The notes beneath the pieces were generated by a model. It searched no databases. It was not told where the DNA came from and saw nothing but the letters and a program-made list of their open reading frames with translations. Below, one piece after another: positions 3,068 to 47,529 of a DNA stretch of 64,000 bases. The stretch is from Glandiceps talaboti (taxonomy: Eukaryota > Hemichordata > Enteropneusta > Spengelidae): the NCBI RefSeq assembly GCF_964340395.1, contig NC_135570.1:9825322-9889321 (forward strand), given 5' to 3'. Within the stretch, counting starts at the first letter, position 1. The number at the start of each line of letters is the position of its first letter. The translations under genes and the position numbers were made by a program.

Positions 3068-3808
3068 TTAATTAAAGTCGATTTCTTCCCCCTGACGGGG
3101 GGTCACCGACTGTCCTTCTTTCCATGTGGCAATCACATTCCTCCACCTCTGCCTGTTCCCATAGTCATTGATGTTCAATCCAATCTGTTTACATTGTCCT
3201 TCCACCATACTCCTCCATGTTAGCTTTGGTCGCCCTCTCCCTCTTTTTCCATCCACCTCCAGATTCCATGCCCTCTTCACTCCTTCTCCCTCATCTTTCC
3301 TCAGCACATGTCCACACCATCTCAGAGAGCTACGCCTTGCTACCTCCACAATTGACTCACCTAGACCTAGCCGTTCCATTAGCATCCCTGAGCCAACCCT
3401 GTCACTCAATTTGACACCACATATCTTTCTAACCATAGCTCTCTCTGCTCTCCTCAAGATACCCTCTTCCACTGCTCTCATCACCCATGTTTCTGCTGCA
3501 TATGTCATAACCGGCCTCACACATGCCTTGTAAATCCGACCTTTCATTGCTAGAGTTAGCCTACAACCACATAGTATGGATTCAAGGTCTCTGAACTTCC
3601 TCCATCCCAGTCCCACTCTTTTTGTCACTGCAAGCTCACTGCCTCCTGCACCATCTAAGGTATCACCCAGATAACAGAACTCTTTCACTCGGTCCAGTTC
3701 CTGCAGCCTTTCACTTACAGCACTTGCATGCTCCGGGTTATCACCAACAAACTCTCCGCCTCGTAGGCATTTCCAACACTCATAATCTGTTGCCATCACA
3801 CTTGTCAC
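3068..3808 (-). mobile_element. Non-LTR retrotransposon, C-terminal part of reverse transcriptase protein
   Basis: A 246-codon open frame encodes the region downstream of the LINE reverse-transcriptase palm. Landmarks in order are FCYLGDTLDG (the conserved YLG block), a KGRIYKACVRPVMTYAAETW block, RRAERAMVRKICG, LRWCGHVLRKDEGEGVKRAW, and KRGRGRPKLTW near the C-terminus. The endonuclease and the catalytic YADD region are missing, so this is a 5'-truncated copy, though the remaining frame is open and therefore fairly young. The minus-strand 3' side runs into a short (ATG)n tail near 3058-3066. Its GC-richer, codon-like composition contrasts with the flanks. The exact LINE clade is not assigned. 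Confidence 0.85.
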
Positions 3809-4106
3809 TCTCCTTACTCCTGCACACCTTTTGTTACAAATAAAGCCAATGGTCCAACTGTTATAGTTACAGACATTTTAGCGAAAGTAGGATATGAGAG
3901 AGTCTAGTATCCACTGTGACAAATCTTTGAGTCAGTGTTCAAGCATAATTTATTAGCATTCATTTTACTCCTGTGTACTCTAGGTGCTATAGTTATCTTA
4001 TGGTAAAGACCAATCCAGTCTGGAACCTATACACATTATATAATAAACTATAGATATTGGAGAGACACAATGTCTATGCATTAACCCAGACGTTTCAGAA
4101 CTTGAC

Positions 4107-7284: not shown

Positions 7285-8710
7285 ATGGCGACTGTCGGCT
7301 CAGAAGCAAGGACAGAAGAAACGTCTTCAGTCGAGATTCCGTCATTTCTAGCGACAGAACAACACCATGCCTTGGCAGTGACATTGTTAGCTTTTGGTAA
7401 GTTTCTATGTTGATGTTGGTCTTTTCTGTCAACTCATTATAACAATTGGTGTTTGGGAAGTGCGCTCACGAGGTAGTACTAGTAGGCCTAGTTTACTGTG
7501 TACATACAGCAGTTGAAATTTGCTGTATGGGTCATTACAATGAAAAGACCGCAAAGCACATATTTCACGGCGTAAAGGCGAAATCGCAGTGTTAAACGTA
7601 CAGTGTATTAACTGATCATTTATGAGTCGGATTTAGATGATGTAAAAATCAGCTTGAAGCCGTTCCCTCACAATATATAGAACACATCGATAGTTTCCCA
7701 TATGCTGACTCGTATGTGCTGTTACGTTATTATTTCAATTCCGATGCTTAAAATCGAAGGTATCCGGATTGTTTCAGAAATGACTGCAGAAACGAACAGA
7801 ACATTGTGAGTAGATGCTCAGTTGGTGGTTATATGGGTACGAGGAGGTTTGTATGTTTCAGTTTAGATGAACAGAAATTTAAAGTAAAAGACGAAGAAAA
7901 TAAGAGATACAGCGATAAGCTGAGAAAAAGAGAAGATAAGGTTCATCAGGCGCTGACACAACACACAAGGAGTATATCTGTGAATGTACTAGTATATTGA
8001 ACAGTATGGCAATTACAACTCGTGAGAAAAAACCGGTGCGTTTGCGCCTTGTAAGCAGGAATGAGACAAGTTTCATGCAAAAACATTCGTTCAGTACTAG
8101 TAACCTATCAAAAACATAAACACCACATGGGCCATGGTCCCAATGACTCTTCTTGCTATAGGCACGGTATCCGTACATTTCTCCATTATTAGTGATAAAT
8201 TTTTATAACATCTGTCGAGAACATTTCTTTGTCTTGCATTACAATAATTGGACACATGGGAGAAGGAAACAATATACTTACAAGGTACAGCTTTACAGAC
8301 AATGAAAATAATTACTGAATTATCTCTCATTTGGCAATCGTTTACACTATGTGATTCCCACTGCGTGACACGCTGCATGACTACGATTCAAACATTTCAC
8401 TAAATTGCGCTATGACCGTGAGAATGTACTGAAAACTTGAAATTACATCTCAGTTGCATGTCGGTCTATTATAAACAATTCAAGATCAATTTTACTGATG
8501 ACAATATTGAAATGTACGCTATCAATAATACTCGACGGTAAAGCATCTATCAGAAAGTTGTCTGAAAGGTATATGAGGCTATAGGAGAATATTAAACTAA
8601 TCATTATTCGTTAATATGGGGTGATTAAATCTTGATGAAAATCACGACATTCTGGTCACGATGATGAAACTAGATTACAGTAAAGATATACAAATGTTAT
8701 GCAATGTATG

Positions 8711-8744
<34 letters not shown>

Positions 8745-8752
8745 TGTATGTA

Positions 8753-8783
<31 letters not shown>

Positions 8784-11700
8784 ATGTATGTATGTATTGT
8801 ATGTATGTATGTATGTATGTATGTATGTATGTATGTATGTATGTATGTATTGTATGTATGTATGTATGTATGTATGTATGTATGTATGTATGTATGTATT
8901 GTATGTATGTATGTATGTATGTATGTATGTATGTATGTATGTATGTATGTATGTATTGTATGTATGTATGTATGTATGTATGTATGTGTGTGTGTATGTA
9001 TGTATGTATGTATGTATGTATGTATGTATGTATGTATTGTATGTATGTATGTATGTATGTATGTATGTGTGTGTGTATGTATGTATGTATGTATGTATGT
9101 ATGTATGTATGTATGTATGTATGTATGTGTCTGTCTATCTGTACGTACGTACGTACGTACGTACGTATACGTACCCACGTATGTGTATGTGCGTGCGCAT
9201 GTGTGTATGTGCGCGCGCGTGCGTGCGTATGTGCAATACATTGGTAATATGTATAGTTACAACGCACACAAAACTAACTACATTGATAACGTTTGATATC
9301 TCTATTCATTTCAGCTATCCTTGGAACTATCCTATCCAGCATGAACATTCGTATGTTCTTGGTAAATCCTGAGTACAGGGCGAAGGGAGGAATATTTTAT
9401 TTCCATATGGTTATCACGAATATGTGTAAGGTCTTGAGTACCATCTTGCTGTTATCAAGCTTCGATTGTCACAAACGTTACAACATTATTTACTTGTATA
9501 TATTACTGGTTGACGGTGATTTCATCGTTCAAGTACTCGTACATGAAAAATGATTTCCCACTCTGCTTAATAAGGTGGAAATATATAAATGTGTGTTTCC
9601 GATAACATGGCTTCAGTATATAGGGTAGATAGGCCAGGATTTTATTTTATTTTATTTTATTTTATTTTATCTTCTTAGTTTGATTGGTTTATTCAAATAT
9701 TGCTTCACAACCAAAAACAAACAATGTCGGTCACAATACCCCTTCTGTGACAGTTTGATGAAAAGTACAGACATCACTGGGGAAAGAAAACAGACGTGCC
9801 TGAAGGTCAAGAAGACAAAGAATTTGTTTTTAGATTTTTTTTTTAATTACTTAGGTTCGGGGGCTTAAACTAGGGTCGGCCTGGCTATCCAAAACACACA
9901 ATTCTTTTTATTCGGCCTAATGCAAGAAGTCATAAAATCACTTTTACAGATCTAGGGAGTGATTACATCCATTTGATCACCGCAACGTTCTAAAGTTGTA
10001 TCGTAGAATCAGTATGGCTTTAATTTAATTAAATTAAATTAAATTAATAGACTCCATGTAATATAGCGATAAACATGTGGACGTAGATATTAGCATAATT
10101 AATTAATTAATTAATTAATTATAAGGTCGTTGACTCCTGCCAGTCTTAATCAAATTGTAGCGGTAGGTCAGTGACAGTGTCAATCAACTTGAGTGGATGC
10201 TATAATCTCGCGATCGTGTGTGATAAACACATGAAACATGCGGACGTAGAAATTAGCATAATTAATTAATTGTAAGGTCGTCGATTCCTGCTAAAGTCTA
10301 ATTGAATCTATCAAATTGTACTAGCGGTACAGTGCACAGACATGTTCAGTGCTCAGACCTTTGTAGTGGCCTGAGGTCAGTGACAGACTAGTGTCAATCA
10401 ACTTGGGTGGATCGTGTGCTATAAACATGCGGAAGTAGATATTAGCATAAGTAATTAATTAATTAATTATAAGGTCGTTGACTCCTGCTAGGCCTATTCG
10501 AATTTATCAAATATTAGCTGTAGTGAAACAGAATACTTAAACAATAATGTACGCCCTCCCAGCCCATAATGGACGAAAGCAAACTTTGAACGACATAATG
10601 GGCGAGGCGACAGCCGAGCCCATTATGGAGTGCAAAGTTTGCTTGAGTCCATTATGGACTGGGAGGGCATACATTATTGTTATTATTTTATAGTTTTGCC
10701 AATGCCAGTGAATTTGTAGCCCGAGAAACGCAAAACAACGTATAATATACACAGCGCTGAACATCGTCTGCCATGTTCGGCCCGGAAGCTGAATACTAAT
10801 CCTAGCGACACACGTACGTACATAAGCTTGTATTGTTATGCTCGTTCCAGGGCTGCGATGCCCAATAACGGAGTACATTATCAGTAATAATGTACAGCGA
10901 TGACGTCACAAAATTCACTGGAATTGGTAATGCTATAATATAATATTCTTTACGTGGTTCAGATATAGCTGTCGAATGGGGTGGGGTATGTGGGGCATGG
11001 GGTGGAAGTGTAACGTGTATTAGCTTTTCTGTCAAATATCCCAGATATTCCTTCCGTGGTAGAGCGTTTCCCGTGTGAGAAGAACGCTTCTTGTCCGCGG
11101 CTTCACTTGCATATATCATTTAACTTTACGTAGCCGGCATACATTTTAGGATAAAGTCATTTTCTTACATGTAAATGGACACAAGCTGAGCTTATACGTT
11201 TTTTGTTGTTTGCAATATGCTACTTATTGCAACATACTTAACCATCGATCACTTGCAAGTTACTAAACTCGAACCTGGTATTCAGATAACTTATACCATA
11301 CGGTCGTATAAACATATCGAGGAAATCACTACTATGCAGTCAACTATTCTAAAACGCCAAACGATATTATAACATTATTGAGTGCATGCATCAACGTTAA
11401 CATCACACTAGAATTGTTAAAGTTCGGTTTTATGTAAGTATTTAAATTTTCACTTGAGTAAATAAAATGCTTATAGACCCAGCAGGCTGTACCACTTTTA
11501 GCTCTGGATGTATACGCTTTTCTCCGCCTTGAAGGGAGAAGACGTGTTGAAACCCCGTAATTAACGTTTACTTCCAGAGGTAGTCCAACTTATAATTTAC
11601 TTTAATATGTTCCATTTTACTAACATCGTCTACAGGTATGGTAATGTTAGGTACACCCTTTACTGCAGTCTGCCATTTCGTTGGGACATGGGTGTTCGGA

Positions 11701-13745
11701 GACATCTTCTGCCAGATGTACGCCTTTTGTGGAATGTTCTTCGGAATTGCTAATATCTTCATGTTGGCGTTTATTAGCATGGATCGGAGCCGTGTATTAT
11801 GCTCTCCAAAAGATGGTGAGTGAGGGTACTTGCAATAAGTATGCTGTGTGTAACCTGTAGCAGAACGTGCTCGTATGAAAATTACTTCAAATGGTCGTAT
11901 GGTCGTGCAGTAGAAAAACACATACAGAAGCACTTATATCAAACATTGGCCCAACCGTCGTCTCTTGAATAACTCATGAACAACATCATGCAAAACACAT
12001 TCATTGGTTGTAAAATGAAAATCCGCACACAAAATTGATGTCTTAGTATTAACACCTCATCTAAAATTCTACGACATCGTGCCACACAACAACACAGCAA
12101 TGACATCAGCCTACCACAGTACTTTGTGAGAGTTTGTTAAGTCTCAAAATCTTCAAATGTTTGAGTTTGTAATTCATTTTTAGCTGTGAAAAGCTCAACT
12201 TTAAAAAAAATTCTACTAGTCTCGCAAGGGACTGTCCCAGGGCTATACGCTTTCACCCAACTGTTTCACAAATAAATCAGTCGGGGTTATCATATTTCAG
12301 CGCACAAAAGAACGCAGAGTTGTGGATTCTTTCTTTAAAATGTCTTATTCAAATGAACAATGAAAAAAGTCCGGAGACTTTGGCAAATCTACAGTGACAG
12401 TAAATAGTCACTTTTTCACAATTTCTGTCAAACCTGACGATGCCGTTCAACAACATGAGAATTGCTTGTATGACACGTTTTAGAAGTTTATTTTAGCTGT
12501 CAAACACTGTCGTTGATGGCGCCGTAGTAGATTTACTATAATACTCAAAGCTAATTTCGATAATAGTTTTATGATATTGGAGGTCCGGTATACTTGATAT
12601 CGTTCAAATTAAGAATTCCACAATTATTCTCCTTTTTCAGCCGATGATGGCGCTAAGTATTATCCATTCTTGGTCGCTGCTGGTTGGTTTATTGGTTTTT
12701 TAGCAGCATCAGCACCCTTGTCACCTTTCGGCTGGTCTCGTTATACATACGAGCCATCAGGGACTGCCTGTGCAGTTGATTACATGACGAATGATTCTAC
12801 CTATGTGAAGTATATCACGACGGTGTTCGTTGTTTGTTTCCTCGTTCCATTTGGATTAATGCTATACAGTTATGGCAAAGCTTGTGTTGTTATCAAACGC
12901 ACAGGGAAAGTGTGTGACTGGGCTGATGAAACAAACGTTTGTTGGGTAAGAAAATGATATCTTTCTTAATTTTTTTACTCATTTTTTTTCTGTTTGCTTG
13001 ATTTTATAACAGGTCAGTACAAAACTCAGGCGAGGTCAGGCTGGGTTTTATTTATTGAAAATGTATAGTATAACTTTCAGCAGCGCAGAATAAGAAAACT
13101 GAACTCTAAAAAAGAATTCAAATCTAAAACTCAATCTGAGCAAAAAATAATTAAAGTAGAGAGGTAAATCGTATCAGTCTGAATCCCAAAAAAATACATC
13201 TGGATTGGACTGGGCATGGGTTTATAAACAAACACATATTATTTTGAGTATTAGATTGATTTTAATAGCCTATCCTGGACCATACCAATGAAAACCAACT
13301 ATGCCTGCGTTTCATAGTATTCATATGAAGCATAAAGCTTTGGACTTTGTGATTTGTGATTTGGGGAGTCTCGGTTGCACAGCCTCTTGCCTTTGAGGGC
13401 ATAACCCTGGGGTTATGCCCTCAACGGCAAGAGGCTGGGTAACCGAGACTATGATTTACCCAACATAATATTTGAATTATGTTGTAGATTTATTATATGA
13501 AATGTTATACTTTCTTCCAGCAATCATGTCTCTGTTTGCTTCACCTTGTCTTCTGTTGGGGTTTGTATGGTGTTACTTGTTTGTGGACTGTATTTGTCGA
13601 TCCCAGTACCTTGCCGTTGATGCTGACCGTTATCGCTCCAGTCGCAGCGAAAGTCTCTCCTATACTCACCTCATGGATTTACATCATGCAGATCAAACGT
13701 TTCCGGGGAGCTGTTGCTGATATGTTCAAACCAAAAAAAGAGTGA
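7285..13745 (+). CDS. Atypical opsin (RGR/peropsin-like), five coding exons, 310 aa
   Basis: Seven-helix retinal-binding receptor family. Exons: 7285-7396, 9315-9425, 11636-11815, 12641-12945, 13521-13745; all introns are GT-AG, phases match, and the total is 933 nt including the stop. Seen in the protein: Cys100 and Cys178, aligned with the bovine rhodopsin C110-C187 disulfide; GWSRYTYE with Glu172 at the E181 position; Trp249 in CWGLY (helix 6); and Lys280 in APVAAK at the K296 Schiff-base position. Unusual: helix 1 Asn (1.50) is Ser45, helix 2 Asp (2.50) is Asn73, DRY is Asp124-Arg-Ser, and NPxxY is TSWIY (286-290). The ends are short, as in RGR-type opsins, with a C-terminal KPKKE. Family knowledge: opsins bind retinal as light sensors or photoisomerases. 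Inference: the lost activation residues favour a non-canonical role. Subfamily assignment is tentative; opsin identity is firm. Confidence 0.9.
8703..9170. repeat. (TGTA)n microsatellite in opsin intron 1
   Basis: About 430 bp of TGTA repeats interrupted at intervals by TATTGTATG and short (TG)n steps, ending in (ACGT)n and GCGC-rich alternating purine-pyrimidine sequence up to about 9230. Confidence 0.97.
10060..10510. repeat. Three imperfect tandem units of about 165-190 bp in opsin intron 2
   Basis: Motifs CATGYGGACGTAGATATTAGC, an (AATT)n run, AAGGTCGTTGACTCCTGC and GTGTCAATCAACTTG recur from about 10074, 10237 and 10424. The (AATTAATT) tracts and a (TTAAA)n run at 10020-10045 make this intron patch highly AT-rich. 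Confidence 0.8.
10541..10680. repeat. Foldback element (long imperfect hairpin) in opsin intron 2
   Basis: The left arm starting ACAATAATGTACGCCCTCCC is mirrored by a right arm ending GGGAGGGCATACATTATTGT. Both arms continue through CCATTATGG and CAAACTTTG motifs, leaving a small centre. No ORF. The structure is MITE-like. Confidence 0.85.
13367..13450. repeat. Near-perfect 84-bp hairpin in opsin intron 4
   Basis: AGTCTCGGTT at the left edge pairs with AACCGAGACT at the right edge. The arms continue through CAGCCTCTTGCC and GAGGGCATAACCC with very few mismatches and almost no loop. It lies about 70 bp upstream of the last opsin exon. Confidence 0.9.
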
Positions 13746-16490: not shown

Positions 16491-16561
16491 CCGGCCGCCC
16501 CTAATGCAAATCGTACCAATGCCTCGTTTTGAAATAAGATTCACAAGACGTTAGTGTGAAC

Positions 16562-18571
16562 ATGGGCCCCTGCAGAAGTGGTTTACTTCTCACCTTGACC
16601 ATCGTACTGGTAGTTGCGCTGTTCATAAACCAGACGTCATGTAGCAACATACTGGTTATACCGAGTATCAGTGAAGGCAGTGTATTCATCTTATTGAAAA
16701 CTATGGCAGATGACTTGGCAGCACGGGGACATAATGTGACACTGCTGGTATCCAGTATTTATTACTCAAATATTGTGGAGTCGATTGACCCCGACAGTGC
16801 AGACGATATGCATATTGAGCAGTTTCCAGGCATCTACGATCTTGCCAATGCTGATGGCGATAAATTCAACAAGCTTGCCTTAACTGGGAGAGCAGGGTGG
16901 TATTCCATGTTTTTAGCTTTTGAAGTGATAGTTCCAGAATGTGACTTGTTGTTGTCTGATAAAGCCGTGTTGATACGACTGAAGAACTCACAGTTTGACC
17001 TCATAGTGACATGTGAGCTCACACCATGTGGTGCACTCCTAGCTCATCACCTAGGCCTCCCGTTCGTTCTCATTTCGTCAAATCGTGTTATCCCTGAATG
17101 GGATGCAGATATGTATAATATTCCAAACAACATGGCGTACACACCATGCATAGGGACAGGTCTTACAGACAAGATGTCTTTTCTCGACAGAGTGTACAAT
17201 TCGGCTTACTACGTAATGAAATACATTTCGAACGCCATAGTACTCGCTGGATATGGAAAAATAAAACAGAAACATAACATCAAACCATATTTGAGTATGC
17301 GCGATGTGTTTGCTGACGCGGAGCTATTTCTGTTTTGCACAGATTTTTCACTGGATTTCCCGAGACCTATGATGCCGAATGTTGTGTTTGTGGGAGGCGG
17401 CTATCTCACTAAAACTGCAAGAGTCTTGGACAAGGTCGGTTTCATTCATAAGTTTTTGTAGTAGATGTATTTTAACTATGCACGCCTTTCCAGCTTTTCC
17501 TGAGTCAAACAACTATTAAAAAATCTACAAATGTATGTCGCCCCCCCCCCCTTCCTCCTAAGGTTGCGATAGACACCCTCTACGGTGACATGACCCCCAT
17601 GTCAAGGTTATTGTCGCACGAAGTTTTTTTTTATCATGACAAGTCAGTGTAAGTAAGGTACACCCTGGGTACACCGTGTGTCGTATCGTTCAGCCCTAGA
17701 AATCAGGTGGTATCTGAAAGGGTGGCATGATGACACGTTGTATCTCACAGTCAGGGACCCTGGCACTGGGGTTGCCGACATCAGGGATTGCCTAGAATTC
17801 AGGCATTGGGGATTTTGAAATTGGGAAGTAACGAATTCAAAACCCCCATTCGCATGGATTCCAAGCCGACTGTATATCACATCAAGGCACATTCAGTAAT
17901 TACAAGGGGGAGGACGGGGAAAATCATGATCATGCCCTGTATGTTGCGTATTTACCCTCCCCCAATTCCGTCATGCTAAAAAGTGACACTCTCTCAATTT
18001 CCATTCTCTAAAACATAATTCCCCTGGATAATCTATATTTTCTGTTCAAATGCAATAATTTGGCTTGCGCATGGTGTAAAAGCTAATAGCCTTATTTCCT
18101 TTTATACGCAGGAACTTGAAGACTTTGTTCAATCGTCTGGTGAGGACGGCGTTATCATATTCTCTCTCGGAACATACGCTGAAATTGATGACGAAGATAA
18201 ATTTAGGAAGTTCGCCACGGGTCTGAAAAAACTGCCACAAAAGATTATCGCTAAATACAATGGTGATCAGCCACCGGATTATCTGGACACGACTAAGTTT
18301 AAACTTATGAAATGGATACCACAAAACGACTTATTAGGTAAAGTTCAATGACACCAGCAATATCAAGTTCAACTACAGTCACAACAAAATACCTGACCAC
18401 TGACCCAACTTGACAAGGGGTTTGTGCCAATACCACCCGTTTAATGTTAGCGTTCGCTGACTCTGTTTTATACAAGCAGGCAGAAACCAATGCGAAATAT
18501 CAAATTCTGCACGTGTACACATCAACAACAAGGCAATTTGCATGAATGGTTTGTTTAAAGATTAACGTACG

Positions 18572-18666
<95 letters not shown>

Positions 18667-20399
18667 TATATATAATATGCATGTCTTCAACATCGAATCT
18701 ACTTTGACATATTCTTCATGTGAAAGTATTCATTTTGATGTCATTCAAATCGTTATGGAAACTAAAGCTCAAGCATGGTAGGACACTTTTGAAGCATGAC
18801 ACTGACAGAAACATGGGTGACAAGGACGGTTACCGTTTCTCTAGTCGTTTAGTTTGTTCATATTTTCTATCAAGATGCATACCATAACGTATGAGAGTTT
18901 ATAATTTAATATCAATATCATATTGACAATATTCTCTCCCCAGGGCACCCAAAGACCAAAGCATTTGTGTCTCACGGTGGTCTAAATAGCGTCTATGAAG
19001 CAATTTATTATGCAATACCGATGATCGGAATACCATTGTTCTATGATCAACATGACAACATCAAGGCGATTGCTGACAAGGGAATGGGTATTGCACTGGA
19101 TATTAGAACTCTCACATCAGACGATCTGTACGAAGCTACAACCGAAGTCATTAAGAATCCCAGGTACGGTCACAATAATATATTGGTGCTCATATAACTA
19201 TCTCAAAGTTCTGTAACATTTTTTTGTCTCCTTTTTTTGTGTGTTACAAAATCAATTTTTACTTTATTTAAGGGGTAGACGATGAGTTGCTACAATTTGG
19301 GGTGTAAGTTTTGATGCATATTGAAAAGGTACTCGTAATATTCGTAAGCATAATTTGTAATCCAGAGAATTCATACATAGCATGAAGATATAACTCTGAA
19401 AAAATCTGATGACGTCATTCATTTTATGTGTAAAAATATAACTGTTGATGAACTCCCCACTATACAATGCAAAAAGACAATTGTGATGTCATAGAAGACA
19501 TGCATTGAGTTGAGTTTATAAGCTTTATACCCAAGTAAAAATACTTGCTTACAAGATATTCATTTAAACTTTTCTAGTTATCCATTCTTGTAACTATTCT
19601 GGTAATGTTAGTGTTGATGCAGTCTTCTATGACATCATAATTTATGTTCTGGTATTGTTAGAACAGTTGATTGCATAGTAGGGAGTTCCGTACATTTTTG
19701 ACACGTATGATAAATGACGTCATTGGATCATTTATACGTCATATCCTAATACCAGGTTTGAGAGTCAACTGCAAGGGATGGTTAAGTATACACCAGTAAG
19801 CAAAATACTGTGGGTACTTTTAATACACTCCAAAACATAAAATACACTCCAAAAACATATCAACTCAGCTTGTGCCCCTTTGACCAACCCAAGAAATATA
19901 ATTGTGACATTTTATATAAACACAATGTAGTGTGTCGATTACTTTATGATTGTGACGATTTTCTTGTCTTCAATGTTTTAGTCGAACAGGAAGGGGCACC
20001 CTCTCAATGAGGAACCTATTTGCCCGTGTGTGGACAGGCGCCCCCAACGACGCAACGTACAGAGTATTTTGTTTACTACAGATACGATGAAGGTCATAAA
20101 AAGTAATCCAATCTTGTTCTTGTAGGTACAAGGATAATGCTGTTCGTCTATCTGCAATCCATAAGGATAAACCCATGTCCCCTAAAGACGCCATGATCTA
20201 TTGGACTGAGTACGCCATCAAACATGGAGGGAAACATCTCCAGTCACAGGCAGTGAATCTAAATATCTTCCAGTACTATTTAGTTGATGTTTTTGCCTTT
20301 ATAATCTGTGTCTTTGGAGTTGTTGCAATTATATCGTTTTGGACATGCTGCTTTGTTGGTAAGATGTTCTGCAAAAGACATAAAGAAAAAGTAAACTAA
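16562..20399 (+). CDS. UDP-glycosyltransferase (UGT1 family type), four exons, 530 aa
   Basis: ER membrane enzyme family that moves a sugar from a UDP-sugar to small lipophilic acceptors. Exons: 16562-17434, 18112-18337, 18944-19163, 20126-20399; phases agree and the total is 1,593 nt. The exon 1 donor is a weak gtcggt. Residues 1-28 form a signal peptide. Exon 1 carries the acceptor-binding half; exons 2-4 carry the UDP-sugar half with [29 protein letters not shown] and PLFYDQHDN, the UGT signature with its DQ pair. A C-terminal membrane helix is followed by KRHKEKVN, whose KxKxx end fits COPI retrieval. Odd: the position of the catalytic His (H35 of UGT2B7) is Val41, and that of its partner Asp (D151) is Cys151 followed by Glu152. 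Length is normal for the family. The substrate is unknown, and classical His-Asp catalysis is doubtful. Confidence 0.93.
18571..18662. repeat. (CA)n(TA)n compound microsatellite in UGT gene 1 intron 2
   Basis: About 60 bp of CA followed by about 30 bp of TA dinucleotides. Confidence 0.97.
19610..19880 (+). repeat. Dispersed repeat family, copy 2, in UGT gene 1 intron 3
   Basis: Shares ATTGTTAGAACAGTTGAT, CATAGTAGGG, ATTTTTGACACGTATGATAA, CATTGGATCATTTATACG and GATGGTTAAGTATAC-type segments with 4590-4830 and 33930-34030. Confidence 0.65.
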
Positions 20400-26493: not shown

Positions 26494-29400
26494 TTACGCA
26501 ACTTTTTGTTTCAGTTTTCTTTGAAATATTCTGCTGATAAAACAGCACGACCGAAAAATCACGAATACACAAACTGCAGTAACACAGATTACGAAAACAA
26601 AGACATCAATCAAATAATACTGGAAGAAATTCAAATCGACTGCCTTGGATTCGAGATGTTTGCCACCATGTTTGATGACGTATTCAACCCAATATATCAT
26701 GGTGTCCTTAGGGGACATGGGTTTATCCCTGTGAATACCGGACAGACGGACAGCATTCTCCTTGTACCTGCAAAATATAGAGGATGGACCAGAATGCATC
26801 ACACTGTTCACGCTTCGGCAAAATTTATATAAGATAAGGTTCACAGAATTATCTATAATGTGTGCATTGAAACCATTCACACAGTGTAACATTGATAAAC
26901 AACTCATATTGCAATGGAATAATGGCTATCCAAAGAAGGGTCAAAGGTTACACGCAAAATATTATTGCTGGCAGTTTATCTAGATAAGTTGTATGTTGTT
27001 TGAGTTGTGCAATTTGTTGATAGTAATCCAATACAAGCAGCAATCAAGCTGTGTTGTTAGTGATTAGAATCTATCTAATTAAGTCATATAGTACACGGAG
27101 ACCGGCGATGGCACTTACTCTATGGATTTATGTGAGAAGCCAATTTTGAAGACAGGAAAAAAAAAATCTGGCATAATAAAAACAACAGAGAAATCAGACC
27201 GAATACGGGATTTGGGTTGATTGTGTCTGCGCCTAGTGAGAACTGGCACATTATGAATACTCTTAATTCTTATTATTATAAACAAGGCGTATTTATGTAA
27301 TTATGAAAACGTGGAATGCACAATTGAACGTCATTCTTGTGTACCTTGGATCTGTTATCACCATGGAAACGGCTTCATACAGGTTTTCTGAGGAGAAAGT
27401 CTTCACATCGAGAGTTACACCCATTCCCTTGTCCGTCATCGTCTGCACATTGTTATGTTGATCGTAGAATAAAGGTACTCCTACGATTGGTATCCCGTGG
27501 TAAAGTGCCTCGTAAAGACCGTTTATACCACCGTGGCAAACGAATACTCTGGTCTTCGGATGAGCTGCATTTGTAAAACATACTGAAATTAAGTCTGATA
27601 TTGTGTTTTAATTAATTCATGAAATGAAATTTTCCCAAAATTTGCTATAATGTGATTGGTCAAAGTTCAAGATTACAGTAGTTACTCGGTTTAGCGCCCT
27701 CACACGGGCAAGCGCCCAGTGTGTTTGTTTCGACAATGTCTATTTTTAGATAATTGGAATCCTGGCATACTACTACCCACAATTACTTATCGTGGGAAAT
27801 ATGCGTTTAATATCAAAACGATATCAAATTAAATGATATTGGACATTATTTTCATAAGTTGGTAGGTATGTCGTATCTAAGAAATACAACATCTTCGTGT
27901 TATACGTACTTGAGTAAACTGTTAGAACGACATTGAGTAATGAATTAAGCTCATTATTATTGAAACACTCAAACACCCTTACATTTCCTGCACTTTTGCC
28001 TCTATATAATGCGTCGTACTATGTTATAAAATATGCGTTTGGACGCGTGTTTATCACTAATTAGATACGATTGCTTGGTGGGGGAACTGCAGAGGCTTGG
28101 GGATCTTTGTATGATTGGATGGACAAGAACTTGATCGCGAAGCAATAAAGGGTCACTTAATATGAGCTCCTCGTTTTGAGCCGCGTTAGTGCACACGAGG
28201 AAATACAATTTTTAAAGCCTTCTTGTGTCACAATAAATCAGCGACGTCATCATTCTAATTTATATTACAACAGTTATATTTCCTTACCCAGTAAATCATT
28301 TTGTGGAATCCACTTCATCAATTTAAACTTGTCATCGTTCTGTAGGTAATCGGGTGGTTTATCCCCTCCGAACTTTGCTACTACTTTCTGCGGTAGTTTT
28401 TGGAGGCCCAAGGCAAACTTTTTGAAATGCTCTTCGTCGTCGAATACTGCATACGTTCCCAGAGAAAATACGATAATGCCATGCTCTCCCGATGATGCAA
28501 TAAAATTTTCGAGATCCTGTAAGTAGGGAAACCTAGTGTTACATCAAATGTCAGGACAACCACTATATCTATCTTGTCTAGGGGTTAAAAATTGTTTCAT
28601 TTCATTACATATTGAGCCTAGATCGTGTCGTTCCGCCCTCATCGGCCTCCTCTCGCTGACCGATGTGTGAGGGCGCCCCTTCACGGCGTACCTCACAGAC
28701 TAACATTGCGCCCTAAGCTATATATTACAGTGTGAAGAAGTTCTATATATAAGCATCATGATCTGAAATATCTAACAATATATCCCTGCTCTTTCAGCTT
28801 AGGCCAAATAAAAAAATAGTGTCTTTCCGATAACCCGACCGACCGTATATATAGTTTAACATTTTTTGCATGCAAAAAGCTAAAATGGTAAGAATTTACT
28901 TCATTTCCGTGTACACCTTCATGCCTTTGCCTAATTTTGTTGTAAATTTTGTTGTAAAAATTGTGTTCCAGAGAGAAACCAGGTCGTCTTAGACAATAAC
29001 AGTATAGTCTTTATAATGTGTTCATCTACTTAACTTATAATTGTCTTCATTTACTTCTTTTACACCTCATCAAACCCTCGAAAAAAAAATTGTAGCCGAC
29101 GAGTGTCTTATCTTGGGGTCAAGTAATTAAAAAAAATTAAAGTAAAAATAAAATGAAATTACCATATTTTCTGGTCATGTTATCGGAAACAAACCTTCCT
29201 TTTTTAATTTTGCCTTACTAACATATGTTAGATATACACAAATTAAAACTATTGTGTCGATGTGGTACATTACATATAAGTGTGTGATAACTGTTATGTG
29301 GTTATAATCACTCTCTGATTAAGATAGTGTGCACACTTCAAGGCCCCGAATTAAACACTGCATAATCACGGAGGTCATATCAGAAGCCATTCAATGGCTT

Positions 29401-29758
29401 ATATCAATATGTCGCAACAAATAAAGTTTTATGTCAGCTTAGTTTGCTGGAAGCTACGTTGCTGTTCTCGTACAGAAGAATTAGAAATGCCTCATCGTAA
29501 TTTGCCTTAAAATTTGAAATTCTTCTAATTTTGATCGTGAGCATTGTTGCTGACAATATGACAAAGAATCGCCACATACAAATAAGCTTATGTACCATCA
29601 TTTGGATCCCAAGTTACCATATCTACTTAAAAAAAATAAACACTTGCATGAATTTGTTCTTCATATTAACAAATAAAATAATATTCATTAAAGTTTAAAA
29701 GGCACTTGCACTTCATTTAACAATCGCAATAACAAGTTTACACAGTTTAAAAGATAAC

Positions 29759-29810
<52 letters not shown>

Positions 29811-30667
29811 CCTACCTTTTCTAAAGGCGAAACTGGTGTGATTAGATAACCACCGCCTAAAAAGATAACTTTTGGCATGAAAGGCCTCGGAAAGTCAAAC
29901 GTAAAGTCTGTATTAAACAAAAATACGTCTGCGTGAAGAAACACTTCCCAAATATTTAGTTCAGGTTTGATGTTATATTTTTGTTGTATGTCTTCATAGG
30001 AAATGAGTAGTGTGGATACCATTATGTATTGCATAGCGAAGTACGCTGAATTGTACAGTCTATCCAAGAACGACATCTTGTTTGTTAGACCTAAGCCTAT
30101 GCTTGGTGTATATGCTGGGTTTACCGGGATATCATACAACAGGGCATCCCATTCCGGTAGGATGCGGTTTGCAGCAATCAAAATGAAGGGAAGGTTAAGA
30201 TAGTGGGCGAGTAGAGCACCACAGGGTGTGACTTCACAAGAAACTATCAGATCAAATGAAGTGTTCTTCAGTCGTGTCATTAAGGCTGTGTCCTGGAACA
30301 GTGACTCACAATCAAAGCTAAGTTGATACAAATACTGGAACATGTGAATCCATCCCATATTACCACTTAAAGCAAGGTCAGGTAAGGGATTCTCCTTATG
30401 GTTAAACTTGCCCGTAAACACATCAACATTCAACTTAACTGATTCTGATTTTAAAGAGATGTTTATGTTTGGGTGATAGACCCTGGATACCAACAGGGTC
30501 ACATTGTGTCCACCGTCTGCCAGGTCTTCTGCTACTTTTTTCACAAACAAGAAAAGGCTACCGGTGCTAACACTTGGCACCACAAGTATATTGCTGCAAC
30601 ACACATCCTTTGTGGCAATCGTAGCAAAAGTCAAAGTCAAAAGAGTCAAATGAACCAAATTAGTCAT
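26494..30667 (-). CDS. UDP-glycosyltransferase, four exons, 524 aa
   Basis: Second UGT, convergent with the one at 16562-20399. Exons on the minus strand: 30667-29816, 28516-28288, 27564-27345, 26767-26494; total 1,575 nt in phase. Exons 3 and 4 have exactly the same lengths as in the first gene (220 and 274 nt), showing a shared origin. I chose the Met at 30667, which begins a signal peptide ending near CCSN; an in-frame Met exists at 30724. Seen: [38 protein letters not shown], a C-terminal membrane helix and a KxKxx-type tail (KLKQKVA). The catalytic His position is Leu38 and the Asp partner position is Cys144, followed by Glu145. ER-membrane glycosyl transfer is family knowledge; the substrate is unknown. 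The exon 1 donor sits directly beside a (CAA)n tract. Confidence 0.93.
29758..29811. repeat. (AAC)n microsatellite at the exon 1 donor of UGT gene 2
   Basis: About 18 AAC triplets on the plus strand. On the gene strand the intron therefore begins GTAGG followed by (TTG)n. Reading through the donor would append a poly-cysteine tail, which is an artefact. Confidence 0.95.
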
Positions 30668-30729
30668 CTTAAAAACGTTAGCCGTTAGCGATTCTCCACC
30701 CTGGCATGTTTTTAAGCATAGCATTCTAT

Positions 30730-31385
30730 GTGTAAAATGCGCTTGTTTGTTTGACTAGTCCAGGCTTAAACAAGACAATACCGCTGGGTATGAACTGATG
30801 TAACCCGTAACATTCTAGAAACTATTAATCATAATAGTTCTGCTACTTTGTTTACGAGCCCAACAGTCTAAAAATAGAATGACATATGTTATTTTTTTTA
30901 CATTTTTTATCCCCACATATCTAATGGGTTATAATTGGAAACATTTCAATGAATTTTAAGGGTAGGGAATAAATATTATTGTGGTCTCATAGATAATACT
31001 AACTCCTAGTAAGGAGATTATTTTGTTAAGTCTTTCACATTGAAAGCGTATGCAATATCAGAAATAGTGATCATGGAACCCTTGTTACTTTTAAATATTT
31101 TATGACTTTATGAGTTTGTATACTTGCATTACCTTTTCCAGCCAGACAGGGGGAGAGGAAGATTTGAGAGTATGTTCCACGTGTAGTCCATTGTAGCATG
31201 TCTTTTTATTGTCAAGTATGATAGTGCTGATATAAATATATATATATATATATATATAGTTTTGATTGTAACTCGGAGTCTCACGCATAGTGCGATCATC
31301 AGACCTATCGAAACTATCAAAACTATTGCGCTCTGCCACTGCGGTATAGAGCACTGTGTCTTAGCAGATTGATACTCACCGAGAT
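30730..31385. other. Upstream flank of UGT gene 2
   Basis: AT-rich, with no exon and no convincing promoter element. A short (TA)n run lies at 31232-31258. Confidence 0.45.
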
Positions 31386-32410: not shown

Positions 32411-32784
32411 CAGGTGAAGCTAGTGCACATTTAAATAAAATATCTCTGTCAAATCCAGTTAGACTATAGCAAAATCTATGGATAGACACTGAAGAAGGTA
32501 CAAGTGATTTGTTCGAAACAAGTATATATCTCAATCTAAAGTGGAAGAAGAGAACCTGTTTTTGAATAATCTCAGTTGTTTAAGCACATCTGAGACAATT
32601 AAGTAACACAGTATCCCATTTTTTAAAAACTTGCCAGGAACTAAACTCCTAAACTAATAACGTTAATGTATAATGACTTGAAACCATTAAAATTCATGTA
32701 ACACATTTCCTGGAAATGAGACGAAAATGGGAGAACAACATCTACATAAGTATCGTGTATATAAATCTCATTGGTTGTAATTTT

Positions 32785-33280
32785 AATTGTTAAACCTGCA
32801 CTAGCTGCAACTGGGACATTGTTTTTTCATCAAATAAACAAAGATATATTTCCCTAAAAATTCGCCCATTACTTACGTTACTTATTATACATCGTATCTG
32901 TTAATTAGTTGTCAATACTATGTGTACGTAGTGTAGTGGCAAGTTTAAATCTTGCTAAAGTTCGTGTTTGAATCTGTCACACTGTTAAAACAGCACTAGT
33001 GGAAACTGGAGTATTATTTACCGATCAGACAACCACAATATATTGTTAAAATACCAATAATCATATATTGTAATGTTAACCAGTGGTCGATATGTATCCC
33101 TAAAGCAGTACAGAAACATGTTGAAATCGAGGTCGCCATTGAGGGCGCAATTTACTAGATAAATCGTGCAGGTACAGAAAATATGTTTACTCACGTACAC
33201 GTGATGCAGTACTGATCACGGTGTACGATACTTCGAGCAATAAGTTAATGTACCTAATAAAACATTTTTTTGAAAAACGT
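32785..33280 (+). repeat. SINE-like repeat with tRNA-like core, copy 2
   Basis: Same order of motifs as copy 1, with the tRNA-like core ACGTAGTGTAGTGGCAAG near 32925-32985. This copy lies inside the large duplicated segment and is repeated at about 55470-55965. Confidence 0.55.
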
Positions 33281-33283
33281 TCT

Positions 33284-34305
33284 AGTTACAACTGGTGCAG
33301 CTTTTGATATAAAATTTTTAAATAAATTTGTATAGGCACATCTAGAATATTCAAATTTTTATGAGTAAAAATGAGACAACAACACATTGATTGTAAATTG
33401 TAATTGTTAATGTTTTTTTGTAACTGTTATGGTTATTTTTAACACCTAGTCTATTTAGGTGTTTTATTTTCTTACACTCTTTTGATATTTTGTTGATAAA
33501 AATGCAACATTTCAAAAACTTTGGATAACAATGATTGGTTTGCAGTATTTTCACTTGTAAAGTGTGATTTTTTGAAAGAAATAACCAAAACCTTGAAAAT
33601 TATGATGTAAAATTTATTACATTTGCTAAAAAAATAAAGACTCCAAATTTTATATATTTGCCCACTGTAGTTAATGTTAGTATTTCTTATTCTTATTTCT
33701 TTCTGCCATACTTACTGTATTTTTAATGATTTCCTCATCCGTTATGACGTGTTCTTTCACGTCTTCTTATCAACACATACACAGTATAGCGAAAAAAGAG
33801 ATAGGTTTAAAGTGGCACAATCTGAGTTTATAAGCTTTTCACTCGAATGAAAATTCTTACATGAAAAACTTGGTTAAACTATTTTAGTATAATGTTAATG
33901 TCAATGTATACCTTCTATGACGACACAACAATGGTCTTCTGGCATTGTTAGAACAGTTGATGTCATAGTAGGGGTTTCTTGAACATTTTTGATACATATG
34001 ATAAATTATGTCATCGGATTGTATATGAGTTAGGGACCGGTCAGTTTCTCCAGCCTGGAGGGGGGGGGGCGGTGGATTCTTAAATTGGGCCGACAAAAAG
34101 TCACTGACCCCCCCCCCCCCCCTATCTGTAAAACCCAAAACAGGCTGACCCCCCCATCACTTAATTCTAAAACATGATGACCCCCCCCCCCCCATATATG
34201 ATATTCGCATGAGTGACAGGTATTTTTTGATCGTGACTCAGTGTGGACTGCTTGACTGTCTTGCATCTACTTTATAAGATCCCGGGTTAGCACTATCATA
34301 ATTAT
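33284..34305. other. AT-rich spacer with C-tract repeat
   Basis: No gene. Part of the dispersed family (4590, 19640) recurs at 33930-34030. Poly-G (34060-34069) and three poly-C runs (about 34108-34195) form a low-complexity patch that differs slightly in length in the duplicate. Confidence 0.6.
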
Positions 34306-34307
34306 AA

Positions 34308-35116
34308 TTATTGAATACACAGGGTAAATATATTTGAAAAGGAGTTTAGAACGACGTCGGTGTTGACGAAGAATAACTCGTCGTCAGCATATACATCTCG
34401 TATACCCAACTCTGGCTTAATGTTATATTTCTGTTTAACCTTCCCATAAGGTGTAAAGACGATGTTGATTGTGATGTATCTCATGACAAAGTAGAGAGTA
34501 TTGTATGTTCTCTGAAGAAAGTTCATTTCATCTGGCAGACCTGATGCTACACATGGTATATACGCTGGGTTGTTTGGGATATAGAACATGTCGGCATCCC
34601 ATACGGGTATGATACGAGTAGCTCCAACAAGAACGAAGGGAAGGTCTAGGAAATGAGCCACTAGAGCGGCACAGGGGGTAAACTCGAACGCAATTACCAG
34701 ATCAAAATTGATTTCTGTAACCGCTTTATAAAAGTCTCGTCAGAGAATAAACTTACGCAATCTTCACTGTAATTGTACAAGAAAATAGATATATGAAAAC
34801 AGCTCATTGTTCCACTCAGTGCGATGTCAGAAAACAGTTCTATGTTATCACCCATATCCATGACTCCCTTGAACCTCTCTAAAGTTATGTTCGACAAATC
34901 TGACGACTGAACGATGTCTTCATAGTAAACACTGGACACTACTATTGTTACACGGTGTCCCTGTTCGTTCAGGTTCCTTGCAATCTGGGCCATCACGAAA
35001 AATCGACTTCCAACACTCATGCTTGGTACTATTAGTATATTACTACACGACACGTCTCCGATGATTTGGCTTACAACTACAGCTAATATACTTAAAGACA
35101 CTACGAGCGAAGCCAT
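34308..35116 (-). pseudogene. UGT first-exon pseudogene, copy 1
   Basis: Encodes a signal peptide (MASLVVSLSILAVVVSQ) and the acceptor-binding half of a UGT with NILIVPSMSVGSRFF, GHRVTIVVSS and, in the next frame, FDLVIAFEFTPCAALVAHFL and IPNNPAYIP. A one-base deletion just before the FDLV block shifts the frame near 34700. The exon then breaks off at NTDVVLN, before the FPRP-type end of the domain, and no exons 2-4 are found in the 1.9 kb downstream to the start of the duplicated segment. It also lacks the catalytic His (Arg at that position) and Asp (Phe). Related to but distinct from the two intact UGT genes. Non-functional as an enzyme. Confidence 0.88.
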
Positions 35117-35639
35117 TTGCAACTCGTACAACTGTTTGCTTTCTTTGAAAGAAACACTTATTTGAATAACGCCTTTATTTAAAGAGTCTCTACGTCTCAC
35201 CGTCGCTGGTGGCGAGATTACTCTCTTAATGTTATAGTACCTCTTCATAGCATGATAGCATCATTCTCTCAACAAAATTACTAAGAGAGCTCGACCCTTC
35301 AGTAATTTACAAGTGGGTGAGTGTCAGGGAAATGGGGCTAGGTCAGACTTTACAAATCAGTTCTCAGGAGAGGGCAAAATTTAAGAAAATGAAATTAGGG
35401 GAGGGTACATGACTAAATTTATTATCTAACTCTGCATTGTGTTGGGAGTTTTTAGCATCTCACCACTGCCACCACTGCCACATCCCACTGCTGCCACATC
35501 CCATCGCTGCTACTGTTGTACCATAATAACATAGCATAACATATCAGTGAAATCGCTGCATGCAACCATGCAATGAATACATTGTTAGTTGTGGTGTGAA
35601 GAGAGGAGTAGGTTTCACAGAAGAGTAGGGAGAACCGTG

Positions 35640-35965
35640 TTGTTAATTACTGAAAATCATTAATTATGCAAATAACTCATTAAAACTAACTGTTACATCG
35701 ATAAACTGTGCCACACATGTGCATCCTGGTTTCATGAATGTGTGTACGACATTATATAGAACTTGAAGCTTGCACTCTTCGTATATAGCCTAATTACTGA
35801 AAAACATTAATTAATTATGCAAATGACTCATTACAACTAAAAGCTACATCAACAAGGTTTTCAGGACATGTGCCCTTTGTGTTGTTTGAAGTATGTACCA
35901 AATTATATTCAGTTCTTAACAGATAGCCTAATTACTGAAAATCATTAATTATGCAAATGAGTTCC
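35640..35965. repeat. Three tandem units of about 145 bp
   Basis: TAATTACTGAAAATCATTAA followed by TTATGCAAATRACTC recurs at about 35644, 35790 and 35932, with intervening ACATGTGC and TTATATAGAAC-like segments. Duplicated at about 58324-58648. Confidence 0.8.
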
Positions 35966-36359
35966 AGTTTATGCATAGCCACGTGCTATACAGTGACTAG
36001 CTGGAACACTGCAATTTGGTTTGCGTCTCATTGTTGTGTCTGGGCAAAGTTTGTGCTCAAGTCAATCCAGCTGAATATATGGGAACCTGATAGGATTGAG
36101 GTTATTATGTGAATGATACCTCTTTGCGTTTAGAAACAGTAGGGATTGCTAACTTCCACGAGAGTTTACGAGTAGAAAGATGGTTGTGTCATTGTATATT
36201 GTGCCATATACTGGGGCGGGCAGGGAGAGGGGCTTAACGTTGTTACTATGAATAATGTAGGGAAAGGTAGAATGTCGTGTAGTATAGTGGGCTCTGGTGA
36301 GATATTGGATGTGTGATCTGGTATGGTGTTTTATGTTGTAGTATGGTCTCTAGTGAAAT

Positions 36360-36425
36360 GTGGTGTGGTATGTTGTCGTGTGATGTGATGTGATGTGATG
36401 TGACGTGATGTGATGTGATGTTATG
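36360..36425. repeat. (GATGT)n pentamer repeat
   Basis: Tandem TGATG units on the plus strand. The duplicate near 59060-59090 is shorter. Confidence 0.9.
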
Positions 36426-36843
36426 GTGTGTTGTATGGTATGGTGTCTTGTTGTGATATGAAATTGTATTTTGTATTCACATTATGGTCATCTAAATAAG
36501 GTAGAGTTGTATTTTTCACTTATCGTCCTTTAGTGATAATTATATTGATACCTCAACTTCACTCTGATATAATAATTAATAAAACAGTAAACAATACATT
36601 GTATACCTGCTAAATAGATGTCTTTAATTGCTATTTCAAACTCTCAAATTACAAAGCAATTGATTTGATATAATAAGCGAGAACATCCCTATGCAGCAAG
36701 TCTGAGATTTGTTTCGATGTATCTGTAGGAGAAACATAACAAGAAGTTATTAAAATGTACAGCCTTTGTTGAATACGTTTATACAACGAGTATACAACTG
36801 AAGTAACGCTCTTTCTCTATGTACTACCCTCGTTTATAGCATT

Positions 36844-36957
36844 CATATCAAGTGTAAAAGTATACTGTTTCAATTGGTTTATTTACAAGCCTAGCACATG
36901 GCCTTCCTAAAGTGGTCAATTAGCAAATGAAGTCAGTATACTTTTACACTTGATATG
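36844..36957. repeat. Small foldback element downstream of subtilase gene 1
   Basis: CATATCAAGTGTAAAAGTAT and three further bases at the left edge are exactly mirrored at 36935-36957 (23-bp arms), enclosing about 68 bp. On the gene strand the loop contains AATAAA (plus 36877-36883 TTTATT), a candidate polyadenylation signal about 110 bp after the stop codon. Confidence 0.88.
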
Positions 36958-36990
36958 GATGTTACGAATGACTTTACCTTGCTATCGTGT

Positions 36991-42130
<5,140 letters not shown>

Positions 42131-44499: not shown

Positions 44500-45265
44500 C
44501 CTTGAGCTATTGAGTTCATATCGAGTTGATCAAACCGAGTGAAACATCCATATGTTATCCTCGTGAGTTACGATATTGATATGATAGACAGATTAGCAAC
44601 GACATAAATCATCGTCTTTTGAAGCTAGAGTTATATCATATCAAAATTTTACCAATCTATATTATCTACTCAACTGTACCTACTAGGAGCTGTGACACGA
44701 ATGCGTTTTAGCCTAAAACGAGATTTGGCAAGATTTGTCGAGTGAACATGCAAAGGAATGCTAAATGCACTAAACGGAAAATGTATCCGAACATTTATTG
44801 TAAGTATAATAAACTAATTTATATAGCGATATTTTCAAGAGTCACCTGTGACTGCATTTGTAGCGGTTAATTCAGGCGGTCACATTTCCAACCGAGTATA
44901 TTATCAGCCACTTGCCATGTGTACACCGTATGTTCTGGCGCCGGTCGCTATCAATTTTCGTGATGAAGCATAGATGTGTGTGAGTACGTACACTCATCAG
45001 GCAGGGTACAGTCGCTTCGTACATTTCGCTTCATGGAGACTACTTGGCTAATTCAACAATTTTTGTTCAACTTGAATGTACATAGCTCTCGGAATTGGAA
45101 GGTTTCCTTTGATGGCTGATCTTCAAAGTTAAACATACATGTCTCAGTGAAGTTTACATTTTTTGCGGATGTCTAAGATTTTAAGTTGGTGGAAAAGTAT
45201 AAATCCAAATTTTAGAATAACCTACTATTACATACAATACATACATACATACATACATACATACA

Positions 45266-45293: not shown

Positions 45294-45297
<4 letters not shown>

Positions 45298-46868: not shown

Positions 46869-46910
46869 ACACACCTATACATACATACATACATACATAC
46901 ATACATACAT

Positions 46911-46969
<59 letters not shown>

Positions 46970-47498: not shown

Positions 47499-47529
<31 letters not shown>

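What the first reader, a model, noticed from the sequence alone, without database searches (positions are those of the whole stretch)
7285..13745. Opsin that keeps the retinal pocket but lacks most class A receptor switch residues
Aligned by fixed spacing to bovine rhodopsin, the protein has Lys280 (K296), Cys100/Cys178 (C110/C187), Glu172 (E181) and Trp249 (W265). Residue 1.50 is Ser45 instead of Asn, 2.50 is Asn73 instead of Asp, DRY is DRS, and NPxxY is TSWIY. Distances between landmarks are exactly conserved (28 residues 1.50 to 2.50; 24 from the helix 3 Cys to DRY; 6 from Lys to 7.49), so these are true substitutions. RGR-type opsins are known to deviate in such motifs and act as photoisomerases. 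A light-driven retinal isomerase, or an opsin with unusual coupling, is a reasonable inference.
Basis: partly seen in the sequence, partly recalled or inferred. Interest (0 to 1): 0.78.

Follow-up and report, generated by a model that had tools for sequence, protein, structure and literature searches.

The report
Acorn-worm opsin missing receptor hinge residues
An acorn worm carries a light-pigment protein of the peropsin kind that keeps the retinal-binding site but has lost hinge residues that receptors of this type normally use to signal, so it may handle retinal with light rather than act as an ordinary light receptor.

Summary
A five-exon gene at 7285-13745 (+) encodes a 310-aa opsin identical to the NCBI record "visual pigment-like receptor peropsin [Glandiceps talaboti]", an acorn worm. 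The named substitutions and spacings hold. P6.50 and P7.50 are kept in 30 of 30 control GPCR frames from the same genome (27 distinct). The Ptychodera flava orthologue (55% identical) also lacks both prolines, so the trait is inherited. "Most switch residues" is too strong: R3.50, Y5.58, E6.30, W6.48, Y7.53 remain. It groups with chromopsins (peropsin, RGR, retinochrome) at moderate support; ciliary and melanopsin-type groupings are rejected. A DW motif before helix 6 and shared introns favour the peropsin lineage; branching inside chromopsins is unresolved. The genome also holds a canonical paralogue with all X.50 residues intact. Best reading: a retinal-binding chromopsin that lost ordinary light-driven G-protein activation, probably a photoisomerase or retinal-handling opsin. 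Function was not tested. A new variant of a known kind.

The parts
7285..7396 (+). exon 1: N-terminus and start of TM1; ends phase 1
   Evidence: ATG, donor G|GTAAGT
9315..9425 (+). exon 2: rest of TM1, IL1, TM2 to 2.52; phase 1-1, 111 nt; carries S1.50 and N2.50. The matching segment is absent from the Ptychodera isoform X2 protein
11636..11815 (+). exon 3: TM2 end, TM3 with C100, Y103, DRS
12641..12945 (+). exon 4: TM4, ECL2 with E172 and C178, TM5, IL3 with DWAD motif
13521..13745 (+). exon 5: TM6 (L6.44, W6.48, L6.50), TM7 (P7.39, K280, TSWIY), helix 8, stop

Best explanation
A hemichordate chromopsin, probably of the peropsin lineage, that binds retinal through Lys280, with Glu172 (E181) as likely counterion, and isomerises it with light, but has lost the hinges of ordinary class A activation (N1.50/D2.50 site, F6.44/P6.50 in TM6, N7.49/P7.50 in TM7). 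It most likely works as a light-driven retinal isomerase or retinal-handling opsin, not a light-activated G-protein switch. Shown: gene, residues, orthologue in a second family of acorn worms, paralogue with intact motifs, affinity to chromopsins at moderate support. Inferred: retinal binding, isomer preference, photoisomerisation, loss of G-protein activation.
For: K280, E172, C100/C178 and W249 are in place, and the model is a 7TM with helix 8 whose best structural matches are opsins. Pocket sites (recalled list) are 23 of 26 identical between the two acorn worms against 145 of 244 in the core (hypergeometric p 0.0008). P6.50 and P7.50 are lost in both species but kept in 30 of 30 control frames and in the canonical paralogue P0012. 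Chromopsin group at 84/91, or 88/92 without the recalled rows, L041 and GPR63; groupings with c-opsins (p 0.004, 0.019) and melanopsin/Kumopsin (p 0.0225, 0.012) rejected. In PMC8628405 RGRs and retinochromes, the opsins held there to be photoisomerases, show the strongest deviations and are the only groups of that family departing from NPxxY (passages).
Against: Several activation residues persist (R3.50, Y5.58, K5.66, E6.30, Y7.53, F7.60), among them pairs that PMC8628405 reports as altered in RGR or retinochrome. Opsins and receptors with altered NPxxY can signal, and PMC9368030 disputes that RGR serves visual opsins as an isomerase. Spider peropsin is a poor isomerase compared with squid retinochrome, and its chimeras behave as dark-active receptors (PMC5824942 abstract and discussion). 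Pocket make-up does not single out retinochrome: 14 of 26 shared, as with melanopsin. The same test in the canonical Glandiceps-Ptychodera pair also shows excess pocket conservation (24 of 26, p 0.008), so pocket constraint says 'opsin', not 'isomerase'. No expression or biochemical data.
Confidence: 0.5

Rival explanations
1. A signalling receptor after all: dark-active and light-inactivated like the engineered peropsins, or coupled through an altered mechanism that does not need the TM6 and TM7 prolines.
For: R3.50, Y5.58, E6.30, K5.66, Y7.53 and F7.60 are kept in both acorn worms; helix 8/C-terminus 13 of 17, TM6 20 of 28 and IL3 10 of 16 identical; peropsin chimeras are dark-active (PMC5824942); altered NPxxY can signal (PMC9368030).
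Against: P6.50 kept in 30 of 30 and P7.50 in 30 of 30 class A frames of the same genome; D2.50 and N7.49 lost together in Glandiceps; Y3.51 lost.
Confidence: 0.27
2. A chemosensor or retinoid-binding protein whose light response no longer matters.
For: Some chromopsins lost Lys296 altogether (gluopsins, nemopsins, sea urchin astropsins; PMC9368030 passages).
Against: K280 and E172 are kept in both species, and the pocket is better conserved than the rest.
Confidence: 0.13
3. A decaying or non-expressed gene.
For: Long stem branch of 1.1 changes per site; no transcript data seen here.
Against: Intact frame and splice sites; annotated orthologue 55% identical in another family; structured conservation.
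Confidence: 0.04
4. A true RGR-opsin (orthologue of vertebrate RGR) that has diverged.
For: Grouping with recalled bovine RGR is not rejected (AU p 0.445); RGR-opsins of hemichordates are reported (PMC9368030); L6.44 shared with recalled RGR.
Against: The DW motif before TM6 is absent from the recalled RGR; core identity to RGR 22.8% against 28.8% to RRH (recalled) and 32.4% to P0012; TSxxY/NSxxY, not NAxxY. The four introns match the canonical peropsin-type gene, but RGR introns were not compared.
Confidence: 0.06

Closest known systems
Ptychodera flava 'visual pigment-like receptor peropsin isoform X2' (P0002)
   Same: Orthologue: 55% identical, 100/100 support; K296, E181, Y113, L6.44, S7.50, DW motif
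   Different: M not L at 6.50; N kept at 7.49 (NSWLY); DRC not DRS; the record lacks the exon-2 segment so 1.50 and 2.50 are unknown
Canonical hemichordate 'peropsins' (P0012 Glandiceps, P0013 Ptychodera, P0014 Saccoglossus)
   Same: Chromopsin group; DW motif before TM6; for the Glandiceps gene, same four intron positions and phases
   Different: All seven X.50 residues intact, NPxxY, DRY; H113; acidic residue at 292 where this protein has P; core identity 28-32%
Retinochrome (Physella acuta, P0007)
   Same: N at 2.50, altered 7.49, Y113, E181, P292; retinochrome is a light-driven isomerase in cephalopods (PMC8628405 passages)
   Different: Keeps P6.50 and P7.50; no DW motif before TM6; 24.6% core identity
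RGR-opsins (recalled bovine sequence)
   Same: Altered NPxxY, L at 6.44, E181, K296
   Different: NAxxY; keeps N1.50, D2.50, P6.50; no DW motif before TM6
Vertebrate peropsin (RRH, recalled mouse sequence)
   Same: DWADxxxV before TM6, Y113, P292, 28.8% core identity
   Different: All seven X.50 residues intact, NPxxY and DRY intact

Membership tests
Opsin | Lys at 7.43 (K296) | tested here: met
   K280
Opsin | Class A 7TM fold with closest structural matches among opsins | tested here: met
   PF00001 E 1.4e-26; model pLDDT 76.6, top-ranked matches opsins
Opsin | Binds retinal and absorbs light | not testable with these tools
   needs expressed protein
Chromopsins | Falls in the RGR/peropsin/retinochrome clade | tested here: inconclusive
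   best tree says yes, 84/91 and 88/92, below the tool's star; c-opsin and melanopsin/Kumopsin placements rejected, placement with L040/L042 not rejected (p 0.146); no named Go-opsin or neuropsin row was available
Chromopsins | P292 (7.39) and R314, given as conserved in PMC9368030 | tested here: met
   P276 and R298, both species
Peropsin | Conserved NPxxY (PMC9368030, PMC8628405) | tested here: not met
   TSWIY, NSWLY
Peropsin | Gene structure of the peropsin type | tested here: inconclusive
   all four introns match the Glandiceps canonical gene; vertebrate peropsin introns were not compared
Peropsin | Clade with vertebrate/hemichordate peropsins | tested here: inconclusive
   in the best tree but support 33/0 and 62/79
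RGR-opsin | NAxxY motif | tested here: not met
   TSxxY / NSxxY
RGR-opsin | Clade with RGR | tested here: inconclusive
   AU p 0.445, one recalled RGR row
Retinochrome | VPxxY or YPxxY motif | tested here: not met
   P7.50 is S
Retinochrome | All-trans retinal bound in the dark and isomerised to 11-cis | not testable with these tools
   needs spectroscopy and retinal extraction
Gluopsin | Glu in place of Lys296 | tested here: not met
   Lys296 kept
Astropsin (echinoderm) | Clade with astropsins | not tested
   no astropsin sequence was obtained; some are reported with Glu296 (PMC9368030)

The most novel reading that the evidence does not exclude
A separate hemichordate opsin lineage in which both proline hinges of class A receptors (helix 6 and helix 7) and, in Glandiceps, the sodium-site pair are gone, so that light cannot drive the usual helix-6 swing: a third, independent route from a signalling peropsin-like ancestor to a non-signalling retinal photoisomerase, beside RGR and retinochrome, with an intact signalling-type paralogue still in the same genome.
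Probability: 0.35. Interest if true: 0.62.

Novelty: new variant of a known kind. Interest (0 to 1): 0.47.

Why it matters
How opsins turn from receptors into retinal isomerases is argued in PMC8628405 (passages) from two cases, RGR and retinochrome, each with its own altered residues. This gene offers a third pattern, with a control beside it: an intact paralogue in the same genome with the same intron positions. It also gives a natural class A fold lacking both P6.50 and P7.50, useful for asking whether helix-6 movement can occur without its hinge.

Tried and rejected
Alternative exons: translated frames at 4-17 kb were scanned for NPxxY-like and Asp-bearing TM2-like strings (three NPxxY-like, all on the minus strand; three TM2-like on plus and two on minus), and the whole window for Lys-x5-NPxxY (two, at 36.0 and 58.7 kb); none sits in opsin-like sequence. 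tblastn of eight proteins (P0001, P0002, P0004-P0009) gave, outside the five exons and their edges, one chance match (E 0.24, 31 kb). Pocket composition as a guide to retinochrome-like chemistry: not discriminating. A structural comparison could not decide active or inactive state; both kinds of rhodopsin entry are among the best matches, and no RGR, peropsin or retinochrome chain is in the 50 rows shown by each program, which is not evidence of absence. Protein searches returned 3 proteins and 11, in both only P0001 itself and P0002 as close kin; no Saccoglossus copy of this gene appeared although the same database gave a Saccoglossus canonical peropsin. That search depends on shared words, so loss in Saccoglossus is not shown. 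Whether the genome holds an RGR gene is unanswered: the search for it did not complete. Pseudogene and chance-motif readings are disfavoured by the orthologue and the control.

Literature: searches over the open-licence library listed no paper that, by title or start of abstract, describes this gene. I saw passages only of PMC6233551, PMC4898813, PMC4847921, PMC13403383, PMC9776813, PMC8628405, PMC4289182, PMC5115664 and PMC3583139; the abstract and discussion of PMC5824942; and of PMC9368030 the abstract, passages and sections 4.3, 4.6 and figure legends. PMC13403383 includes P. flava and S. kowalevskii opsins in a tree; its supplementary tables were not read, so the Ptychodera orthologue may already be listed there. 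One opsin phylogeny (doi 10.1093/gbe/evw248) was not held, and an Ambulacraria opsin study that I recall was not looked up.
Full report
WHAT IS THERE. The window comes from Glandiceps talaboti, an acorn worm (Hemichordata, Enteropneusta, Spengelidae): the spliced product is identical over 310 aa to an NCBI protein of that species named 'visual pigment-like receptor peropsin'. The window's place in the whole genome is contig C24, 9825322-9889321. The gene has five exons with GT-AG borders and intron phases 1, 1, 1, 0.

RESIDUES. The stated residues and spacings are right. Two more belong on the list: F6.44 is Leu245 and P6.50, the helix-6 proline of the CWxP motif, is Leu251. So of the seven X.50 positions, 1.50 (S), 2.50 (N), 6.50 (L) and 7.50 (S) are changed and 3.50 (R), 4.50 (W), 5.50 (P) are kept. 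Residues of the G-protein face that remain are D3.49, R3.50, Y5.58, K5.66, E6.30, Y7.53 and F7.60; the Y of DRY is Ser. The pairs named in PMC8628405 (passages) read here: D83/N302 lost, R135/Y223 kept, K231/E247 kept, Y306/F313 kept, NPxxY lost. That is a pattern of its own: that paper reports R135/Y223 altered in retinochromes, and K231/E247 and Y306/F313 altered in RGRs.

CONTROL. From loci L001-L008 and L013-L038 (34 loci) the longest frame over the middle was taken; the 30 of at least 300 aa were aligned with the 19 opsin and receptor rows. Three pairs are the same gene fetched twice (L002/L026, L004/L034, L006/L030), so 27 are distinct; some (such as L020 and L023) are themselves opsin-like. 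N1.50 is kept in 26 of 26 scorable frames, D2.50 in 27 of 29 scorable (one of the two exceptions, L020, may be misaligned), R3.50 in 29 of 30, W4.50 in 28 of 30, P5.50 in 29 of 30, P6.50 in 30 of 30, P7.50 in 30 of 30. These loci were picked by similarity to the Pfam 7tm_1 model or to this protein, so typical receptors are favoured. The window protein is changed at four of seven, recalled bovine RGR at one, recalled mouse RRH and the three canonical hemichordate peropsins at none. The script counts a gap as a loss: retinochrome P0007 scores two, N at 2.50 and a gap at 4.50 (I), and the scores of P0002, L041 and other incomplete rows are not used. In Ptychodera only 3.50-7.50 can be read, and two of those five (6.50, 7.50) are lost.

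SECOND SPECIES. The Ptychodera flava record P0002 (266 aa, isoform X2; family Ptychoderidae) is 55% identical. It lacks the segment of exon 2, whose 111 nt in the window are flanked by two phase-1 introns, so it is consistent with in-frame exon skipping. It shares L6.44, a lost P6.50 (Met), a lost P7.50 (NSWLY), a lost Y3.51 (Cys), and K296, E181 and Y113. Between the two species 23 of 26 pocket sites (my recalled list) are identical against 145 of 244 core sites (p 0.0008). The canonical Glandiceps-Ptychodera pair gives 24 of 26 against 187 of 261 (p 0.008) and Glandiceps-Saccoglossus 19 of 26 against 176 of 285 (p 0.15). So pocket constraint is present but is not special to this gene.

PARALOGUE. 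The genome search with the protein found the gene's own five exons and no second copy among the 122 matches (128 of 231 candidates scored); the best multi-exon match elsewhere was on contig C20 (47% over 79 residues). That gene (L039; record P0012) has canonical motifs: LGN, ADL, DRY, WLPY, NPALY. Introns: (A) seven codons before 1.50, phase 1; (B) codon 2.52, phase 1; (C) eleven codons after 3.49, phase 1; (D) twelve codons before W6.48, phase 0. All four are the same in both genes; exon 1 of P0012 was not found in the fetched stretch, so A is read from its acceptor and the GCT codon. MAFFT places C one column apart because of a gap in IL2; the ungapped distance from D3.49 is equal. In two other Glandiceps opsin genes (L040, L042) C is also present and the acceptor of D lies at the same place, so these two introns are not specific; their TM2-TM3 stretch lies in one exon, so B is absent (donors read by eye). 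B is therefore the informative one: present in the window gene and P0012, absent in the other two.

RELATIONSHIPS. A 19-row tree puts the pair (100/100) in a chromopsin group at 84/91 with RRH, RGR, retinochrome and the hemichordate peropsins; without the recalled rows, L041 and GPR63 the group has 88/92. Holding the pair with c-opsins is rejected (p 0.004; 0.019) and with melanopsin/Kumopsin (p 0.0225; 0.0124); with RRH, RGR, retinochrome or L040/L042 it is not (p 0.502, 0.445, 0.251, 0.146). No named Go-opsin or neuropsin row was available, so those are not excluded; L040 and L042 are of unknown class. A DW motif just before TM6 occurs in 6 of 19 rows: the pair, the three hemichordate peropsins and recalled mouse RRH; four rows (Kumopsin, L040, L041, L042) lack part or all of that loop and cannot be scored. 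This favours the peropsin lineage. PMC9368030 (abstract, passages and sections) describes the chromopsins, gives P292 as conserved (met here), peropsins with NPxxY (not met), RGR with NAxxY (not met), and retinochromes with VPxxY/YPxxY (not met). So it looks like a chromopsin, but fits none of these three subclasses by motif.

MECHANISM. Inferred: retinal on Lys280, counterion Glu172 (Tyr at 113, as in many E181-type opsins of Acanthaster, PMC6233551 passages), light isomerisation, little or no ordinary G-protein activation. RGR and retinochrome, the photoisomerase-family groups reported as departing from NPxxY, are the ones held to be isomerases in PMC8628405. But PMC9368030 doubts that RGR serves visual opsins as an isomerase and cites receptors that signal with altered NPxxY, and spider peropsin isomerises poorly while its loop chimeras are dark-active receptors (PMC5824942 abstract and discussion). 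A dark-active receptor therefore stays the main rival.

WHAT IS NEW. No paper found here describes the gene (listings of an open-licence library only), though the NCBI annotation exists and one 2026 paper includes P. flava opsins in a tree whose tables I did not read. Altered NPxxY in chromopsins is known; loss of P6.50 together with P7.50 was not met in any other row aligned here or in the passages read. Acanthaster 'peropsin' and RGR also show altered motifs (NPLMF, NAALQ), so erosion of the TM7 motif in ambulacrarian chromopsins is not unique.

Noticed in passing
P0012, P0013, P0014 (P0012 gene on L039, G000:C20): The canonical hemichordate 'peropsins' of three genera carry an acidic residue (E, E, D) at 292, one turn from Lys296, and His at 113; chromopsins are said to have P292. 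A possible alternative counterion.
   Followed up: partly
window 9315-9425: Exon 2 is flanked by two phase-1 introns; the annotated Ptychodera isoform X2 lacks the equivalent segment, losing much of TM1 and TM2 in frame.
   Followed up: partly
window 16538-20396 (+), 26497-30754 (-), 34311-35260 (-): Cluster of UDP-glucuronosyltransferase genes next to the opsin; Pfam PF00201 matched four frames (16.5, 18.9, 26.5 and 29.8 kb). The 34-kb frames are assigned by eye only; the one tested (34697-35260) had no Pfam match.
   Followed up: partly
window 32427-41334 and 55113-64000: Recent segmental duplication of about 8.9 kb, 98.4% identical, offset about 22.7 kb, running to the window's end and holding the UGT-like frames.
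   Followed up: partly
window 45230-50434: Tandem units of about 2.3 kb starting near 45.2, 47.6 and 49.9 kb (the last partial), 97% identical.
   Followed up: no
window 3071-3877 (-), 54447-55121 (+): Open frames that look by eye like reverse-transcriptase fragments of non-LTR elements; no Pfam match at 1e-3.
   Followed up: no
L040, L042: Two other multi-exon Glandiceps opsin genes with YR[LY] instead of DRY and no Pro at 5.50 (Q, H), grouped together at 99/96; class not determined.
   Followed up: no
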